From the NCBI GenBank assembly GCA_902570715.1, contig CACFZB010000006.1:1-34463 (forward strand): a stretch of DNA of 34,463 bases, read 5' to 3'. The first letter of the stretch is position 1. The number at the start of each line of letters is the position of its first letter. This stretch comes from an uncultured Pelagibacteraceae bacterium (GTDB lineage: Bacteria > Pseudomonadota > Alphaproteobacteria > Pelagibacterales > Pelagibacteraceae). A model generated the notes under the pieces. The model searched no databases and had not been told where the DNA came from. It was given only the letters and a program-made list of their open reading frames with translations. Below are positions 2,438-31,132 of the stretch, in pieces. A program made the translations under genes and the position numbers.

Positions 2438-4099
2438 TTATTCTTTGTAAAAAACAATATAATTATTTATTTTTTTTGCTTTTAAATTCTTTTTGTACGG
2501 ACATGGAGAAGGAATATTCCAGCAATTATTATTAAGCGGTTCATAAACTTTAATGTCATTTTTTAAATCATGTTCTATAAATTTAACTTCAGGGATATTA
2601 TAATAGGGAAAATTAATATATTTATACATATCGTTACGGTCAAATTCGTGAGATATTCTTAAAAAATTTTTCGCAACAAAAAATATTAATCCAAAAAAAA
2701 TTAAAAATTTCAATTTATTCAAAAATTTTTTTTCATTTAATTTAAATTTATTTAAATATAAAGAAACTGGTATTAAAAAGATTAGAAAAAAAGGTGCATA
2801 TCCTCCATACCTTAGAGCAGGGTGTTTAAAAAACCAAAAAAAACTAATAAATAAAACTAATGAATAAACCAACGAAAAATTACTTTGTAAAATTGCTTCT
2901 TTTTTATTTTTTGAGGAAAATAAAAATAAAAATAATATACTAATTGTAATTATTAGAATTAGATTGTCCAAAAATCTTCCAAAAAAATAATTTTTGAACC
3001 AAATTTTTACCCAATATAAATTTTTAATTAAATTATCAGAATCTTCTGCCACATAACCTGCTCCAGCAATAGATTTAGCCCATTTCTCATACCAAATTTT
3101 ATATTCTATTACCTCCTCTTTTGGCATCGCCCATAAAAGATTTTCAAAACATAAAAAAGGTATTGGATAAATTATACACCCAGATGAAAATATATTTAAA
3201 GTAATATAGCTGCATGTAAAGGCTATTAAAAAAAATAAGAAATATTTGTTATTAATTATTATTTTTAAATAGTCTTTAATATTTATTTTATAAATCATTA
3301 AAGCATATATCAAAAAATAAAGAATAAAGTATGTTTTAATAGTAAAACAATAAAGACATATAATACCACTTAGTATAATTACTTTTTCTTTTTGAAGTTT
3401 GTCCTTTAATAAAAAAAAGTAAAATACTAGATACGTAAATATAAGTATTAATAATTGACCAATTATATCTGTCCCATATTCAGCAGACCTTGTAAATTTC
3501 AAAAGAATATAAAATAAAGTCATTAATGAAAAAATTTTTAAAAACTGATTATTTTTTTTATTAACTGAAAAGTTAATTAAAGCTAGTACTACACCCGTTA
3601 GGAATAATTGATTTGGTGCATTAAAAAAATAATACTTAAAATATGGAAGATTAAATAAGGAATTAAGATATAACAAAGAGGAATGTTTAGCATAACTAAA
3701 ATCCAAATTTGATAGACCTATCTGAATTTTATTTCTAGTCAAGTTCAATGCAGTTTGAAAATGATAAAAAGCAAAATCATCATGTGTTTTAGAAACTAAT
3801 AAGCCTATAAATAAAATTGTTGTTATAAAAAAAACAAATCTAAGATTTTTAATAATTCTAAAATTTTTTAAAAAAAAGATAAATCCAATAAAAAAAATTA
3901 CCAAATTTAATAAATAATTATGTGGAATAAAAAAAATTGTTACATAAGAAATTAAAGTCAAAAAAATCAAACCTAAAATTACTATTATCCCAATATTATC
4001 TTCGTATTTTATGGCTAAAAGTCTATTGAAACAAAAACCATAACCACAAACTGAAAAAAAGAGAATGAGATAAACAAGAAAAAATATCAATAATTCCAT
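2438..4099 (-). CDS. Multipass membrane protein, possible GT-C-type or polymerase-like surface glycan protein
   Basis: 553 aa, many hydrophobic segments, large soluble loop and C-terminal soluble part; located in a glycan locus. No diagnostic motif recognised. Confidence 0.55.
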   Translation of the reverse strand: MELLIFFLVYLILFFSVCGYGFCFNRLLAIKYEDNIGIIVILGLIFLTLISYVTIFFIPHNYLLNLVIFFIGFIFFLKNFRIIKNLRFVFFITTILFIGLLVSKTHDDFAFYHFQTALNLTRNKIQIGLSNLDFSYAKHSSLLYLNSLFNLPYFKYYFFNAPNQLFLTGVVLALINFSVNKKNNQFLKIFSLMTLFYILLKFTRSAEYGTDIIGQLLILIFTYLVFYFFLLKDKLQKEKVIILSGIICLYCFTIKTYFILYFLIYALMIYKINIKDYLKIIINNKYFLFFLIAFTCSYITLNIFSSGCIIYPIPFLCFENLLWAMPKEEVIEYKIWYEKWAKSIAGAGYVAEDSDNLIKNLYWVKIWFKNYFFGRFLDNLILIITISILFLFLFSSKNKKEAILQSNFSLVYSLVLFISFFWFFKHPALRYGGYAPFFLIFLIPVSLYLNKFKLNEKKFLNKLKFLIFFGLIFFVAKNFLRISHEFDRNDMYKYINFPYYNIPEVKFIEHDLKNDIKVYEPLNNNCWNIPSPCPYKKNLKAKKINNYIVFYKE

Positions 4100-4232: not shown

Positions 4233-4442
4233 GTGAAAACTTTAAAATTAATATTTGTTACTGGAAGTTTACTTTTTGTAAGTGAAGTACCTGCTTTTTC
4301 TTATATTGACCCCGGAACAGGAAGCTTCATCCTACAAGCATTACTTGGTGCATTAGCAGCAATTGGAACTACAATCACAATATACTACCAAAAGATTAAA
4401 AACTTTTTTTCAAGATTTAAAAAAAAAAAAGATAAAAAATAA
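4233..4442 (+). CDS. Small secreted or membrane protein with the YIDPGTGSFILQ motif
   Basis: 69 aa: signal-peptide-like N-terminus (MKTLKLIFVTGSLLFVSEVPAFS), YIDPGTGSFILQALLGALAAIGTTITIYY, Lys-rich tail. Ends 3 nt before the next CDS. Confidence 0.75.
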   Translation: MKTLKLIFVTGSLLFVSEVPAFSYIDPGTGSFILQALLGALAAIGTTITIYYQKIKNFFSRFKKKKDKK

Positions 4443-4445
4443 GTA

Positions 4446-5894
4446 ATGAGTAGATCACTGTATAATCTATATGGTGTTTTTGGTCTTGTACCAATATGGA
4501 TTTTTAGATCAAATTTTAATATTAAAGAAATAGCTATCATTTTAATTTTTTTTTATTTTATTCCTCTAATTTTTCATATTTTTATAGGAAAATTTTTACA
4601 TAAGAATGATAAGACCAAATCATTATATATTAGTATTATCTTTTTTTACTCAATTGATAATAACATAGGCCTTTGGGTTTTAGCAGATAAGTTACCTTTC
4701 TTTTTTTATTCTTATTATTTACATGCAATGATTATAAGTCTAGCAATTATTTTAATATCAAGTCTTATTTTAATATATGAGAAAAAAAACTTTTCAAAAG
4801 TTTTTTTTGTATTCCTAATAACTGTATTAATTTTTAACGTATTTAATTTTGATAAAAATCCTAGTAACTTTCCTAAAAAAGAAATTAAAGATCCAAAGGA
4901 CCTTAATAATAAAACAAAGGAATTTGTTCTTATTCTTGATGAAATGTCCGGAATTGAAAGTGTTGATAGTTACAATGAAAATGGAGTCGCAACAAAAGAG
5001 TATTTAATGAAAATTTTGAAAAAAAACAATTTTGATATTTTTACAAATAGTTATTCTGACTATGGAAAAACACTACATTCAATTCCAACTGCTTTAAATG
5101 GTATTATTGATAGAAAAAAATATTTGTCTAATTTATCTAATCAAAAACCTTACAAATTTTTAACAAAATCAAATAACTATTTTATAGTTTGGAACTTAAA
5201 CAAAAATGAATTTTTTGATAAATATGTTGATAAAAATATAATAGTATTTCAATCAATGTTCATTAATTTTTGTAAACATCCCTCTGTAGTAAGATGTTAT
5301 CAATACAACCCTTTTAAAAAATATGAAAAATATATAGATGGATTTAACTATAATTTACCAGGAAGAGTAATCTCATATTACAAAAATAATTTATCTATAA
5401 CTGGTAATACTTTTTGGAGAATGGTAAGGCATTTTAAATTGGCTGATAGTATATTAGATCCAGAGGGTGAAAAGGCAATATTTCCAACCTTAATTGATCA
5501 AATTCAAAAAGAAATATTAGATACTAAAAATAATTTAGTATTTGCTCATCTTTTAATACCTCATGTTCCAAATGTGTTTGATGAAAAATGTCGTTATTCT
5601 AGAGACAGAGGTATCTATTATAATTTTTCATCAAGAGAGGAAAAAATTTATCAACATAATCTAGAAAGAAAATGTACATTTGTTTTTTTAGATCAATTAT
5701 TTAGCTCCTTAAAAGAAAAGAAAATATTTGATAGCGTTAAAATAGTTATATTTTCTGATCATGATTCGAGAATAGAAAAAAGAGAAATAAATTCAGTTTT
5801 ATTTGCAATTAAAAAAATAAATTCACAAAAATCAAATATAATTAAAGAGACAATATCATCACAGTCAATTTTTAAGAAAGAATTCCTAAATTAG
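4446..5894 (+). CDS. Membrane-anchored sulfatase/alkaline-phosphatase superfamily protein (phosphoglycerol- or phosphoethanolamine-transferase-like)
   Basis: 482 aa; N-terminal TM segments, then FVLILDEMSGIES, GKTLHSIPTALNG (candidate Thr nucleophile), FAHLLIPHVPNVFD, VKIVIFSDHDSR. Confidence 0.75.
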   Translation: MSRSLYNLYGVFGLVPIWIFRSNFNIKEIAIILIFFYFIPLIFHIFIGKFLHKNDKTKSLYISIIFFYSIDNNIGLWVLADKLPFFFYSYYLHAMIISLAIILISSLILIYEKKNFSKVFFVFLITVLIFNVFNFDKNPSNFPKKEIKDPKDLNNKTKEFVLILDEMSGIESVDSYNENGVATKEYLMKILKKNNFDIFTNSYSDYGKTLHSIPTALNGIIDRKKYLSNLSNQKPYKFLTKSNNYFIVWNLNKNEFFDKYVDKNIIVFQSMFINFCKHPSVVRCYQYNPFKKYEKYIDGFNYNLPGRVISYYKNNLSITGNTFWRMVRHFKLADSILDPEGEKAIFPTLIDQIQKEILDTKNNLVFAHLLIPHVPNVFDEKCRYSRDRGIYYNFSSREEKIYQHNLERKCTFVFLDQLFSSLKEKKIFDSVKIVIFSDHDSRIEKREINSVLFAIKKINSQKSNIIKETISSQSIFKKEFLN

Positions 5895-5903
5895 AAAAAT
5901 AAT

Positions 5904-7124
5904 CTAAGTCGATTTATTTTGAGAATTATATAAAAAAAAACCAAAATTTAATGAGAAAAGAGTTGCATTATAAGTAGTGAAAAAACTACCAGAAGGAAGC
6001 AGGGGTATAAAAGTAACTAAAATATAAGTTAATGAAATATAATTAATTTTGTTCATTGGCTTGTTTAATCTTTTAAAAATTAAGTAAAACAAGGATGAGA
6101 GAATAATTACAGTTCCAATCAGTCCGTGCTCTGAAATTAATTCATAATATAATTGATGAGGATGTGTCGAACAACCTCTTGGTTGAATGTTATATTTATC
6201 TACAATGATTTTTTGATATTCTGTACATGCAATTCTGAAATTTTTATTACCTACACCGAAAAATTTATTGTCTTGAAAGATTTCTAGCGCGGTATAAGCG
6301 TGAGCTCCCCATTGAGAATATTTATAAATTTGAATTAAATTATCTTTTTTATCCTTATAAGTAGTTGATGATTGAAATCTTTTCATAATATTATTACTAG
6401 TAAAAATTAAAGTTAAAAAGCTAATTATAAGGAATGTAAATAAAGTAAAAAAAGTTATCTTAAGGTTTTTTCTCCCCATTAGTAAAAATAAAAAAACACT
6501 AGCCATAATCAAAAATTTCAAAAAATTTGATCTTTCACCTGTTACAAAAGTAGCAGCCAAAAAAATAAATAAAATTGATAAAGCTAACAATCTTTTTTGG
6601 CGAAAATGATAAATAATTGTTAATGATAGAAAACCTAAACCATTTATAATTGATGCAGCCTTCAACTCACTAAAGAAAAAACTGCTATTTCTTGTTGGGC
6701 TTGATGTTTTATAGCCTAAAATATTATGACCAAAATAGCCTTGATAAATAATATCCAAAGATAGAATTATTAGAAGAACAGTCCAAAATATAGATATCTT
6801 TGAAAAGAATTGATCAAAGTTTTCAAAAAAAAATATTAAAATCAAAATTAAACACATAAATCTTAAAAAGAAAATATTTCTTTGAGCAGAAATGATTGGA
6901 TCTATGGATAAAATAGAATTAAATATTAAATATACATATATAATAATAAGTGGCAAAAAATATTCTTTATTAAATTTAATTGAACTATTTTTCATCAAAT
7001 AAAAAAAATAAATAACTGTAACCCCTAAAAAGATATTCACTAATAAAGATCCAGAAATTAAAAAAATAATTATAAGAGAAAAAAGTTGAAGGTAAATTTT
7101 ATTATGAGTTTTTAAAATTTGCAT
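5904..7124 (-). CDS. O-antigen ligase/polymerase (Wzy_C/WaaL-like)
   Basis: 406 aa multipass protein; TGERSNFLKFLIM, FGVGNKNFRIACTEY, STHPHQLYYELISEHGLIG, typical of the O-antigen ligase domain. Confidence 0.85.
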   Translation of the reverse strand: MQILKTHNKIYLQLFSLIIIFLISGSLLVNIFLGVTVIYFFYLMKNSSIKFNKEYFLPLIIIYVYLIFNSILSIDPIISAQRNIFFLRFMCLILILIFFFENFDQFFSKISIFWTVLLIILSLDIIYQGYFGHNILGYKTSSPTRNSSFFFSELKAASIINGLGFLSLTIIYHFRQKRLLALSILFIFLAATFVTGERSNFLKFLIMASVFLFLLMGRKNLKITFFTLFTFLIISFLTLIFTSNNIMKRFQSSTTYKDKKDNLIQIYKYSQWGAHAYTALEIFQDNKFFGVGNKNFRIACTEYQKIIVDKYNIQPRGCSTHPHQLYYELISEHGLIGTVIILSSLFYLIFKRLNKPMNKINYISLTYILVTFIPLLPSGSFFTTYNATLFSLNFGFFLYNSQNKST

Positions 7125-8118
7125 AAAGTTTAAAGTATAAAACTGTATATATCATTAAATTAAACAATATTAAAAATATTGATATAACGGAATCGTATAA
7201 AAAATTTTTAGCTACCAGAAAATTTAAAAATATATAAAAAAGAATAGATAATGAACTAAATGAATTGGCATATTTTGTTTTAAATCTTTTTTTATAAAAT
7301 TTAAATAACAATTGATGCAGATGGTTTTTATCTGCAGAAAATGGGGATGATGTATTTTTAATAAACTTTCTTAAAATTGAAAAAAGAACCTCATAAGATG
7401 GATACCAAACTAAGAATATTATAAACCATGGTGAAACCTCTGGTGTTAGATAGTTAATATTAATTATCATTACTGAAGTAACAAAACCAATTATATAAGA
7501 GCCTGCATCTCCTAAAAAAATAAATCCAAATAAAATAAGAGTAAATAATATTACTAAGAGAATTAAAAAATTTCCATTTGTAAAAAAACTTAAATAATCA
7601 AAATCTTTTGAAAATAAGTATAATAAAGAAGAAAATATTAAAACGAAATAACCCATCGAAAGTCCATTAACTCCATCAATGAAATTAAATCCATTAATTA
7701 GTATTAAAGAACAGAAAGTACAAAATAATAAATTAAAGGGTTCATAGGATAATAAATTATCTAAAAAAGCTATTCTTGTTGATAGAATATTAATTTGAGC
7801 ATAATTAAAAAAAGTAAAAAGAATTATTGTTTGAATTAAAAATCTTACTATAGGCTTATTTAAAAAATTTAAATCACTTAACAAACCAACTAAAAAATAT
7901 GCAAATAAAAAATATGATAGAAAAAAATATTGATCATTTACATTAAAAATAAAGATATATAAGAAATATGCTCCACCAAGCAAAGGTACTCTTTTATTAA
8001 CTGTCAGTTTTTTATGGTCTGAAAAACTTAATTGATCCAATAGAATTTTTTTTTTTTTACAAATTAAACTTAAAATAAAAAAAGCTATCAAAAAAATTAC
8101 AGAATGTATTAAAGTCAT
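7102..8118 (-). CDS. MraY/WecA-type undecaprenyl-phosphate glycosyl-1-phosphate transferase
   Basis: 338 aa multipass protein; INGFNFIDGVNGLSMGY, FLGDAGSYIIGF, ADKNHLHQLLF. Overlaps the downstream ligase ORF by 23 nt. Confidence 0.88.
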   Translation of the reverse strand: MTLIHSVIFLIAFFILSLICKKKKILLDQLSFSDHKKLTVNKRVPLLGGAYFLYIFIFNVNDQYFFLSYFLFAYFLVGLLSDLNFLNKPIVRFLIQTIILFTFFNYAQINILSTRIAFLDNLLSYEPFNLLFCTFCSLILINGFNFIDGVNGLSMGYFVLIFSSLLYLFSKDFDYLSFFTNGNFLILLVILFTLILFGFIFLGDAGSYIIGFVTSVMIININYLTPEVSPWFIIFLVWYPSYEVLFSILRKFIKNTSSPFSADKNHLHQLLFKFYKKRFKTKYANSFSSLSILFYIFLNFLVAKNFLYDSVISIFLILFNLMIYTVLYFKLYANFKNS

Positions 8119-28121: not shown

Positions 28122-29825
28122 TTATTCCTTTATAATACTTAATTTTTGATTATTCATTTCATAAATTTTTTCACATTTTTGAATTATTTCAAGATTATGT
28201 GAAATTATTATAACTGTGGTTTTTTTATCATTTAAAATATTATCAATTATATCTTTTTGTGTTTGATAATCTAAATTTACTGTTGCCTCATCTAATATCA
28301 TTATAGGTTTGAAAAAATACAAAGATCTAGCTATTAAAATTCTTCTTTTTTCACCCTCAGAGACATTAAAATTAATTCCATCTATTTCAAAATTTAGGTC
28401 TCTGTCTATTTTATTAAAGAAAGTGTTCAATCCTGCTTTTTTAATAACATTAAGAACATTTTTTTCATCGATCTTATCTTCCTCAATTCCAAATGCTATG
28501 TTATTTTTTAATGCAGCATTTAAAAGTAATGATGATTGACTAATTAAAGAAATATTATTCCTAGAAAAATTTATTATTTCATCTGTTGTTAATTTTTTAC
28601 CATCTAAAATATAGTCCCCATCAGCAAAATATTTACCGCAAATTATATTTATTAAAGTTGATTTACCTGATCCTGATGCTCCATAGATACCTATCTTTGC
28701 ACCTTTATTAACTTCAAAATTAAGATTAGAGATAATTTGTTTTTTATTTATTTTAAAATCAATTGTATTTAATTTTATATTGTTGAAATCAATTTCTATT
28801 TTTTCTATTTTTTTATTAGTATCTTGAATATTTTTAAAATCAATTTTATCAAAATATGCTAATTTTTTTTTACAACTTTTGAAAAAAGCATCATCAAATT
28901 GGAAACCAGCAATTTTGGAAATAGCAGTTTTTAGGGGTTGTATTAATCTCAATCCAACTGCAAAAATTGCAGTAAATTGGACAATTGCTTCATTAAATCC
29001 ATAGATATTAAGTAAGACAATTAAATAAACAAACAGTAAAGTGACTAAAGTTATTTCTAACACAAATTTAATTGCGTTAGTTACCTTGTGTCTAAAAATC
29101 ATTAAATCTTGCTCTTCTGATGTAACCTTTGAAAATTTATCTATAAAAAATTCTTGTGCGAAAAAATTTTTAATATCTTCAGAAAATCTTACTAAAATAG
29201 ATCCATATTTAAGCTTATTCCTCATATATTTTAAAATCTCATTTGAAATTTTATGAAAAAAATTTTTTTTATAAAAAAGTAAATATAAAAAACTTATTAG
29301 AGAAATAATAATTACATAATAAAAGTTGTAGATATTATTAAATACCAGAAAAACCAATAGTGAACCCAAAGTAATCAATGATCTAATTAAATCTAAATAA
29401 CCGGGGAAATTTTTAAAGAATGCAGGAATTTCTTGATTAAGAAATGTATTAGTTTCTGTCTCATCAAAATCATTAGTTTGAAGTCTATTTAATCTTATGA
29501 TCTTAAAAAAAATTTCATCTTGAAATAACCTTAAAGATTGAGAGTATTTTTTAATTAACCATACAGAGTTAAAATACGTTACATATGACCTCAAAATAAA
29601 AATAAAAATTGGTACGTATATTAATACATTTTGATTTATATTAAAAAAAAAATTCAATTTTGATCCAACTAATTGTCCGGTGAGAGCCACAAGGGATAGA
29701 ACAAAAATTACATCAAGTAACGACTCGAACAAAGATAAAATGATATATTTTATAAATATATTATCATTATCACATACCTGTAATAATAATCTAAATTTTT
29801 CAGAATAATCTTTAAAATTTATCAT
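28122..29825 (-). CDS. ABC transporter, fused permease/ATPase (PglK/MsbA-like glycan flippase)
   Basis: 567 aa; N-terminal TM domain; Walker A GASGSGKSTLI, signature-like VSEGEKRRILIARSL, Walker B PIMILDEATVNLD, H-loop VIIISHN. Confidence 0.92.
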   Translation of the reverse strand: MINFKDYSEKFRLLLQVCDNDNIFIKYIILSLFESLLDVIFVLSLVALTGQLVGSKLNFFFNINQNVLIYVPIFIFILRSYVTYFNSVWLIKKYSQSLRLFQDEIFFKIIRLNRLQTNDFDETETNTFLNQEIPAFFKNFPGYLDLIRSLITLGSLLVFLVFNNIYNFYYVIIISLISFLYLLFYKKNFFHKISNEILKYMRNKLKYGSILVRFSEDIKNFFAQEFFIDKFSKVTSEEQDLMIFRHKVTNAIKFVLEITLVTLLFVYLIVLLNIYGFNEAIVQFTAIFAVGLRLIQPLKTAISKIAGFQFDDAFFKSCKKKLAYFDKIDFKNIQDTNKKIEKIEIDFNNIKLNTIDFKINKKQIISNLNFEVNKGAKIGIYGASGSGKSTLINIICGKYFADGDYILDGKKLTTDEIINFSRNNISLISQSSLLLNAALKNNIAFGIEEDKIDEKNVLNVIKKAGLNTFFNKIDRDLNFEIDGINFNVSEGEKRRILIARSLYFFKPIMILDEATVNLDYQTQKDIIDNILNDKKTTVIIISHNLEIIQKCEKIYEMNNQKLSIIKE

Positions 29826-31132
29826 AATAGTTTTTCAATTTCCTCTATATATCTTTTTGTAACACCTTTAACTGGATCAATAAGTAATTTTTTTGCTTTT
29901 TTGTTATTTATAGATAATTTCTTGTTCTTTAAGTTAATATAAAGCTTATCCAATGAATAGAAAATTAAATTATTTTTTTTAAGATTCAAAAAATATTGTT
30001 TTTTAAAATTAATATCATCTTTAAAAAGTGAAATATTTGCAGTTGGAACATTTAATGCCATAGCATCTAATGTCATGGATGTACCAGCAGTAAGAACTAA
30101 ATTTGAATTTTTTAAACTTTTAATAAGCACCTTAATATCTTTAAAACTAGAATAAGTTATTTCAATATTAGAAGATTTAAATAAAGATCTAATTTTTTTT
30201 TTATAAAATTTATCGTGTGGATGTGTTCTAATTATGAATTTCACATTTTTAATTTTCTTAGAGAAAAAAGAAATTATTTTTTCAATAGTTTGTAGTTCAT
30301 TAATATTTATTCTATTTGTTGAAAGAGCATAAAAGATTGTAAAATATTTACTTTTTTTCTTTATTTTGATATTTCTTAAAAATTCTAAATAATAATTTCC
30401 AAAATTTCTCACATTTTTTGGAGCTATATTATGAAATCTTATAACTTCTCTTTTCATTTGTTGACTGTTTACTATGTAATTTAAATTATTTAATTTAGGA
30501 ATATATCCTTTTAATGTCGGTCTATCCCAACCATAGATTGAAGCTAATAATTTTATATTTTTTTTTTCTGAAATTTTAATAAGTTCATAACTTTCTGCTC
30601 CCTGTACATCTGTTAAAAAAACTAAATCTGGTTTTTCTTTCTCAATATACTTATTTAGACTTGGGCTTATAAATTTTTTTGAAAAATATATATTTTTAAA
30701 AAAATTAAATATTAATTGATTTTTTTCAAAAGGAAATCCATGTATTCTTTTTAAAAAATTTCCTGCTTTTTCCTCGGCATTAATATCAAAAATATGATTG
30801 GGATATTTTGCCTTTAAATTTTGAAATCCAAGTTTGTTTATTATGTTAAAACGAGAAGAAATAGATTTAAAATTCAAATTAAATAAAGAAATAATATCTA
30901 AAACTTTAAAAATAAAATAATTAAAAAAAATAAATGGATCAAAAAAAAAATTATTCAAAGAAAAATTTGATTCTATAATTATTTTATTTCTCAAATTTTT
31001 TTCAAATTTTGAATTTTGATGTATTAAATATGTAACTTTATATTTTTTTTCTATCTTTTTTTTAAGTAAAGAAAAATAAAAAGTTCTGATAAATTTGTCA
31101 CTTTTAAAATATATACATATTTTTTTTTTCAT
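29822..31132 (-). CDS. Surface carbohydrate biosynthesis protein, GT-B-like (glycerophosphotransferase or epimerase fold)
   Basis: 436 aa; LASIYGWDRPTLKGYIP, IVNSQQMKREVIRFHNIAPKNVRNFGN, VKFIIRTHPHDKFYKKK, NLVLTAGTSMTLDAMALNVPTANISLF. Confidence 0.65.
   Translation of the reverse strand: MKKKICIYFKSDKFIRTFYFSLLKKKIEKKYKVTYLIHQNSKFEKNLRNKIIIESNFSLNNFFFDPFIFFNYFIFKVLDIISLFNLNFKSISSRFNIINKLGFQNLKAKYPNHIFDINAEEKAGNFLKRIHGFPFEKNQLIFNFFKNIYFSKKFISPSLNKYIEKEKPDLVFLTDVQGAESYELIKISEKKNIKLLASIYGWDRPTLKGYIPKLNNLNYIVNSQQMKREVIRFHNIAPKNVRNFGNYYLEFLRNIKIKKKSKYFTIFYALSTNRININELQTIEKIISFFSKKIKNVKFIIRTHPHDKFYKKKIRSLFKSSNIEITYSSFKDIKVLIKSLKNSNLVLTAGTSMTLDAMALNVPTANISLFKDDINFKKQYFLNLKKNNLIFYSLDKLYINLKNKKLSINNKKAKKLLIDPVKGVTKRYIEEIEKLL

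What the first reader, a model, noticed from the sequence alone, without database searches (positions are those of the whole stretch)
4233..5894. Two-gene 'YIDPGTGS' small protein plus sulfatase/phosphotransferase-like module
A 69-aa protein with a signal-like N-terminus, the motif YIDPGTGSFILQALLGALAA, one TM helix and a Lys-rich tail sits 3 nt upstream of a membrane alkaline-phosphatase-superfamily protein. That larger protein has a candidate nucleophile (GKTLHSIPTALNG) and metal motifs (LDEMS, SDHDS). The pair is on the + strand, with a leftward gene on each side, so it looks like a self-contained cassette. From memory, similar YxDPGTGS small proteins occur beside surface-glycan enzymes, but I know of no assigned function. 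Inference: the small protein is an accessory or partner for transferring a phospho-substituent onto the glycan.
Basis: partly seen in the sequence, partly recalled or inferred. Interest (0 to 1): 0.62.

Follow-up and report, generated by a model that had tools for sequence, protein, structure and literature searches.

The report
Small membrane partner of NoeB-like enzyme
An ocean bacterium carries a gene pair, a tiny membrane protein plus a periplasmic enzyme that probably attaches a phosphate-containing group to surface sugars; the same tiny protein sits, largely unnoticed, beside related enzymes across bacteria, including a classic operon that controls which legumes rhizobia can nodulate.

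Summary
In detail: a 69-aa protein (4233-4442, +) lies 3 nt before a 482-aa membrane alkaline-phosphatase-superfamily protein (4446-5894, +), in a SAR11 surface-glycan island. The link is not chance. The small protein belongs to a widespread family with no Pfam or NCBIfam model. In 79 of 80 loci from many phyla it lies within 2.6 kb of a NoeA-like kinase-methyltransferase (60), a NoeB-like sulfatase-fold membrane enzyme (68), or both. Reverse searches agree: every full-length NoeA-like gene found in 197 SAR11-order and 299 Pseudomonadota genomes lies beside it. One SAR11 ORF fuses the small protein to the enzyme. In Sinorhizobium meliloti it is a 'hypothetical protein' between nodL and noeA, an apparent extra gene of the nodL-noeA-noeB operon. 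The window holds a reduced version without NoeA. A homologous branch (YxGPG instead of YxDPG) sits beside arylsulfotransferases and sulfotransferases. Best explanation: a dedicated membrane partner of an EptA/LtaS-like enzyme that transfers a phospho-group to a surface glycan in the periplasm. Chemistry and physical contact are inferred; AlphaFold gave no confident docking. NoeA/NoeB pairing was already known; the small third partner and its two branches appear new.

The parts
4233..4442 (+). small protein, type I 'YxDPG' family, 69 aa (GTG start)
   Evidence: family alignment A3; purifying selection in the family
4233..4301 (+). signal-peptide-like N-terminus (residues 1-23, A-F-S before Y24; AxA-type cleavage site inferred)
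   Evidence: family column -3 is A/S/G and -1 is A (63/64; S only in the window); not tested with a signal-peptide predictor
4302..4325 (+). YIDPGTGS motif (residues 24-31), presumed periplasmic N-terminus of the mature protein
   Evidence: Y and D in 21/21 type I members found by BLAST/HMM, not by pattern
4326..4391 (+). single transmembrane helix (about residues 32-53)
   Evidence: hydropathy, AF2 helix 32-60 at low confidence
4392..4439 (+). Lys-rich tail, presumed cytoplasmic
   Evidence: sequence; tail net charge positive in most of 64 relatives
4446..5894 (+). NoeB-like membrane enzyme of the alkaline phosphatase superfamily, 482 aa: N-terminal helical bundle (to about residue 132) and extracytoplasmic catalytic domain
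4938..4940 (+). metal ligand D165 (ILDEMS)
   Evidence: 31/32 conserved
5070..5072 (+). candidate nucleophile T209 (GKTLHS)
   Evidence: T 23/32, S 9/32
5547..5564 (+). H368-x3-P-H373 motif
   Evidence: 31/32
5757..5762 (+). metal ligands D438-H439 (SDHDS)
   Evidence: D 32/32, H 31/32
5904..7124 (-). context: O-antigen ligase-like protein (Wzy_C PF04932)
   Evidence: E 1.7e-15
7102..8118 (-). context: WecA-like initiating sugar-phosphate transferase (PF00953)
   Evidence: E 1.2e-13

Best explanation
The pair is a reduced SAR11 version of a widespread envelope-modification module: small YxDPG protein, NoeA-like kinase-methyltransferase, NoeB-like enzyme. The larger protein works like EptA/LtaS: its catalytic domain faces the periplasm, a metal-activated Thr takes a phospho-group from a donor and passes it to a surface glycan (here probably the Und-PP-linked polysaccharide made by the island before O-antigen ligation). 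The small protein, after signal-peptide removal, would be a one-helix membrane protein with its conserved Tyr-x-Asp-Pro end at the periplasmic face and a basic tail in the cytoplasm, and would be a dedicated subunit or assembly partner of that enzyme. Shown: genes, conservation, fold class, genomic linkage, one fusion. Inferred: topology, complex formation, donor, acceptor and direction of the reaction.
For: 79/80 loci have NoeA-like (60) or NoeB-like (68) genes within 2.6 kb, 49 have both; the median small-NoeA gap is -4 nt. Where NoeA is absent, the NoeB-like gene is near in 19/20, usually within 160 nt. Reverse test in SAR11: 6/6 full-length NoeA-like genes lie next to the small gene, and 10/10 genomes with the NoeB-like gene carry it. 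In a Pseudomonadota sample, 6/6 NoeA-like genes lie within 2 kb of it while it occurs in only 13/299 genomes. L040 fuses both in one 556-aa ORF. S. meliloti: nodL - small protein - noeA - noeB; 61 rhizobial plasmid records carry noeA and 61 carry the small ORF, with the same breakdown by genus. AF2 of the enzyme is mostly confident and the top PDB match is full-length EptA, with MCR-1 and LtaS also matched. The window's neighbours include O-antigen ligase, WecA-like, NeuB and a cytidylyltransferase.
Against: AlphaFold on the fused pair left the small protein unplaced (pLDDT 34-58), and the natural fusion modelled poorly (57.7). Gene linkage does not prove contact. Only one fusion was seen, none in 201 further genomes. 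A hydrolase is not excluded by fold. In the proposed Nod-factor role of NoeA/NoeB the acceptor would be a lipochitooligosaccharide, not a polysaccharide.
Confidence: 0.6

Rival explanations
1. The small protein mainly serves the NoeA-like kinase-methyltransferase, recruiting this cytosolic enzyme to the membrane through its basic tail; the NoeB-like enzyme is a downstream partner only.
For: NoeA-like is the immediate neighbour in most of the 60/80 loci that have it, with a median overlap of 4 nt.
Against: In 20 loci without NoeA, the small gene stays near the NoeB-like gene in 19, as in the window; the only fusion is to the NoeB-like protein; no NoeA-like gene was seen beside the type II branch.
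Confidence: 0.15
2. The larger protein is a hydrolase that trims phosphate, sulfate or another ester from glycans, and the small protein is a membrane anchor or regulator.
For: Many PDB matches are sulfatases.
Against: The catalytic position is Thr/Ser in 32/32 rows and the window reads T-L-H-S-I, without the Cys/Ser-x-Pro/Ala-x-Arg signature of formylglycine sulfatases; a membrane bundle joined to the domain is the EptA/LtaS plan, and full-length EptA is the top match; the gene sits with glycan synthesis genes.
Confidence: 0.15
3. The linkage only reflects general clustering of envelope genes in glycan islands.
For: The window and many loci are glycan islands.
Against: Very short gaps, the same partners across phyla, 6/6 and 6/6 reverse matches and a fusion.
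Confidence: 0.04

Closest known systems
S. meliloti nodL-noeA-noeB operon (nod box n5)
   Same: The NoeB-like enzyme, and a small YxDPG ORF between nodL and noeA.
   Different: The window has no NoeA-like gene or NodL and lies in a SAR11 polysaccharide island; the small ORF is not part of the published operon name.
Legionella Lani_1193-1194-1195 neighbourhood (PMC9758233)
   Same: Kinase-methyltransferase beside an alkaline-phosphatase-fold protein; the Legionella loci L104, L106, L110 have NoeB-like, NoeA-like and small genes in that order.
   Different: That paper calls the neighbours likely effectors and does not, in the text read, describe the small protein; that Lani_1193 is the small protein is my inference.
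EptA / MCR-1 phosphoethanolamine transferases and LtaS
   Same: N-terminal membrane helices plus extracytoplasmic alkaline-phosphatase-fold domain with Thr nucleophile; among the best structural matches.
   Different: About 12-15% identity; no such enzyme is known to me to need a small YxDPG partner.
WbdD kinase-methyltransferase (O-antigen chain terminator)
   Same: Same two-activity combination as the NoeA-like partner.
   Different: A separate kinase-methyltransferase family (PMC9758233 likens it to another Legionella family, Lcin_0519, and calls even those two only remotely related); no such gene beside the pair in the window.

Membership tests
NoeB-like membrane enzymes | significant profile similarity to S. 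meliloti NoeB | tested here: met
   profile A5, whose first row is the window protein and which does not contain NoeB, finds NoeB at 131.6 bits over both halves
NoeB-like membrane enzymes | conserved D, T/S, H-x3-P-H, D-H motifs | tested here: met
small protein - NoeA - NoeB module | NoeA-like kinase-methyltransferase gene beside the pair | tested here: not met
   none in the locus or in the 55% complete genome
small protein - NoeA - NoeB module | small YxDPG gene beside the NoeB-like gene | tested here: met
   3-nt gap
small YxDPG family (unnamed) | signal-like N-terminus, AxA-Y-x-D-P motif, one helix, basic tail | tested here: met
   A3 profile E 2.2e-27 against the window genome (the window is one of its rows); the type II profile, which lacks the window, gives E 9.4e-9
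EptA/LtaS-type extracytoplasmic transferases | membrane bundle plus alkaline-phosphatase-fold domain | tested here: met
EptA/LtaS-type extracytoplasmic transferases | phospho-group transfer activity | not testable with these tools
   needs biochemistry
Formylglycine (type I) sulfatases | Cys/Ser-x-Pro/Ala-x-Arg at the catalytic site | tested here: not met
   the window reads TLHSI at T209; the position is T/S in all rows; Pfam Sulfatase below cut-off

The most novel reading that the evidence does not exclude
The small proteins are covalent group carriers. After signal-peptide removal the mature chain would begin with a Tyr that is kept in both branches; that phenol would carry phosphate (YxDPG branch) or sulfate (YxGPG branch) and hand it to the periplasmic NoeB-like enzyme or arylsulfotransferase. 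This would supply the natural aryl donor of bacterial arylsulfotransferases, which to my knowledge is unknown. Against it: the Tyr is predicted to face the periplasm, out of reach of the cytosolic kinase or sulfotransferase.
Probability: 0.05. Interest if true: 0.9.

Novelty: new variant of a known kind. Interest (0 to 1): 0.6.

Why it matters
A small-protein family without a database model tracks two kinds of extracytoplasmic group transferase (phospho-type NoeB-like, sulfo-type ASST) across phyla, with one residue (D or G after Y-x) matching the partner. It also points to an overlooked gene inside a genetically studied host-range operon of S. meliloti, where a truncated noeA was found in a strain that fails to nodulate some Medicago (PMC4053727). 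So a question left open since 1995, what NoeA and NoeB do, gains a third component that can be tested in a laboratory strain.

Tried and rejected
Pfam and NCBIfam scans of the pair: nothing above cut-off. The small protein was not found in phage records by direct search; direct plasmid searches with the SAR11 and a Rhizobium small protein found nothing, and the noeA route did. A first fused alignment for AlphaFold (A6) was discarded because MAFFT placed enzyme N-termini on the small protein. AlphaFold of the fused pair (A7) gave a good enzyme but no placement of the small protein; the natural fusion modelled poorly. No further fusions in 201 genomes of the genus. Paper search for the motif string was useless. 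Promoter scan was at chance level. Matches in 480-483-aa frames such as L045 look spurious: L045 resembles a DegP-like protease.

Full report
What is there. The window is 34.5 kb of a SAR11 (Pelagibacter) type genome (relatives are Pelagibacteraceae) and is a surface-glycan island: GDP-mannose dehydratase, DegT aminotransferase, O-antigen ligase, WecA-like transferase, NeuB, cytidylyltransferase and an ABC transporter pass Pfam cut-offs.

The small protein. No Pfam or NCBIfam model fits it. BLAST in 197 genomes of the order found 24 matches, a few of them weak or spurious; a motif-seeded scan of GTDB genomes confirmed 341 places, of which the best 80, from many phyla, were fetched. That scan required [SA][YF]AY[LI]DPG[TS], so motif invariance in those rows is partly by construction. 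In 21 type I members found by BLAST or HMM instead, Y and D are 21/21 and P 20/21, while the following G varies (16/21). Residues -3 and -1 before the Tyr fit a signal-peptidase site, so the mature protein probably begins with Tyr. Ten close pairs show purifying selection.

The partners. Clustering of neighbours gave two dominant families. One is a ~464-aa protein with a C-terminal methyltransferase domain (weak Pfam matches); its invariant D118, N123 and D135 fit the kinase motifs described for the Legionella Lani_1194/NoeA family (PMC9758233). S. meliloti NoeA scores 561 bits with its profile. The other is the sulfatase-fold membrane enzyme, to which the window protein belongs; S. meliloti NoeB scores 132 bits. 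Of 80 loci, 60 have the first, 68 the second, 49 both and 79 at least one within 2.6 kb; the commonest order is small - NoeA-like - NoeB-like (31 loci). Several loci without a NoeB-like gene end soon after NoeA. Some of the 80 are the same genomes as those or close relatives of each other, so they are not 80 independent events.

Reverse association. In the same 197 SAR11-order genomes there are six full-length NoeA-like genes, all next to the small gene, and ten genomes with NoeB-like genes, all carrying it; the small gene is present in about 22-25. In 299 Pseudomonadota genomes the six NoeA-like genes all lie within 2 kb of it, although only 13 genomes have it. If presence were independent between genomes the chances would be about 1e-6, 3e-11 and 2e-9; relatedness of genomes makes these too small, but the adjacency is independent evidence. 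NoeB-like copies away from the small gene exist (two in G107, two in G022), so the enzyme can occur alone.

Fusion and the nod operon. L040:5998-7668 (G080) encodes a small-type N-terminus (E 3.6e-13) continuous with a NoeB-like domain. In S. meliloti pSymA the 71-aa 'hypothetical protein' overlapping noeA is MPIIMSVVGFLILSIVPAHAYLDPGTGSMLVQ..., a clear family member. The plasmid collection has 57 Sinorhizobium, 3 Rhizobium and 1 Ensifer records with noeA and the same numbers with the small ORF, strain 1021 included. NoeA and NoeB are host-range proteins hypothesised to modify Nod factor (PMC9048898), and a strain with truncated noeA failed on many Medicago genotypes (PMC4053727).

The window's variant. 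There is no NoeA-like gene in the locus and none in the 55% complete genome. The pair L026/L028 shows the same change in one genomic place: same flanking genes, NoeA present in one and absent in the other. So the NoeB-like enzyme and small protein can persist without the kinase-methyltransferase.

Fold. AlphaFold of the two proteins as one in-frame read-through chain gave a good enzyme (pTM 0.79) and an unplaced small protein (pLDDT 34-58). Foldseek against PDB ranks full-length EptA first (E 4.4e-7), then sulfatases, MCR-1 and LtaS. TM-scores are low (about 0.35), so this supports fold class and architecture, not substrate.

A second branch. The type II small proteins (AY-x-GPG) are homologous by profile comparison (98.6% probability) and reciprocal search, with the caution that both share signal-peptide and helix composition. 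In the Pseudomonadota sample all eight lie beside an arylsulfotransferase and/or a sulfotransferase. D follows Y-x in 21/21 type I and G in 13/13 type II. Both branches thus pair a small membrane protein with a periplasmic group transferase and, usually, a cytosolic enzyme that could add the group or its precursor.

Mechanism. I think it most likely that the small protein is a membrane subunit or assembly partner of the periplasmic transferase, and that the window enzyme moves a phospho-substituent onto the island's glycan. Steps not shown: contact, donor, acceptor, direction. Prior work covers NoeA/NoeB and their shared neighbourhood; I found no description of the small protein as a family, but the library searched is open-access only and the supplements of PMC9758233 were not read (its Lani_1193 may be this protein).

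Noticed in passing
L036, L039, L041, L043, L044, L133, L134, L136, L137, L142-L145: A homologous small-protein branch (AY[LIVSM]G[PA]G) sits beside ASST-type arylsulfotransferases and PAPS-type sulfotransferases, parallel to the NoeA/NoeB branch.
   Followed up: partly
L146:4811-5026 (S. meliloti pSymA): A 71-aa ORF annotated only as hypothetical lies between nodL and noeA and belongs to the small YxDPG family.
   Followed up: yes
L027, L031, L035, L042, L046, L048: In some SAR11 loci the small gene abuts a ~370-aa glycosyltransferase-like protein (weak Epimerase_2 match) instead of the NoeA-like gene, with the sulfatase-fold gene nearby.
   Followed up: partly
L026 and L028/L049: Same chromosomal place in SAR11 with and without the NoeA-like gene between the small and NoeB-like genes; also a conserved ~237-aa membrane protein just upstream.
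   Followed up: partly
window 2438-4099 (-) and 29822-31132 (-): 553-aa multi-pass membrane protein and 436-aa protein, both without any Pfam match, inside the glycan island.
   Followed up: no
L126 (IMGVR_UViG_3300048852_000112): A contig in the viral collection carries the small gene and a sulfatase-fold gene; whether it is truly viral was not checked.
   Followed up: no
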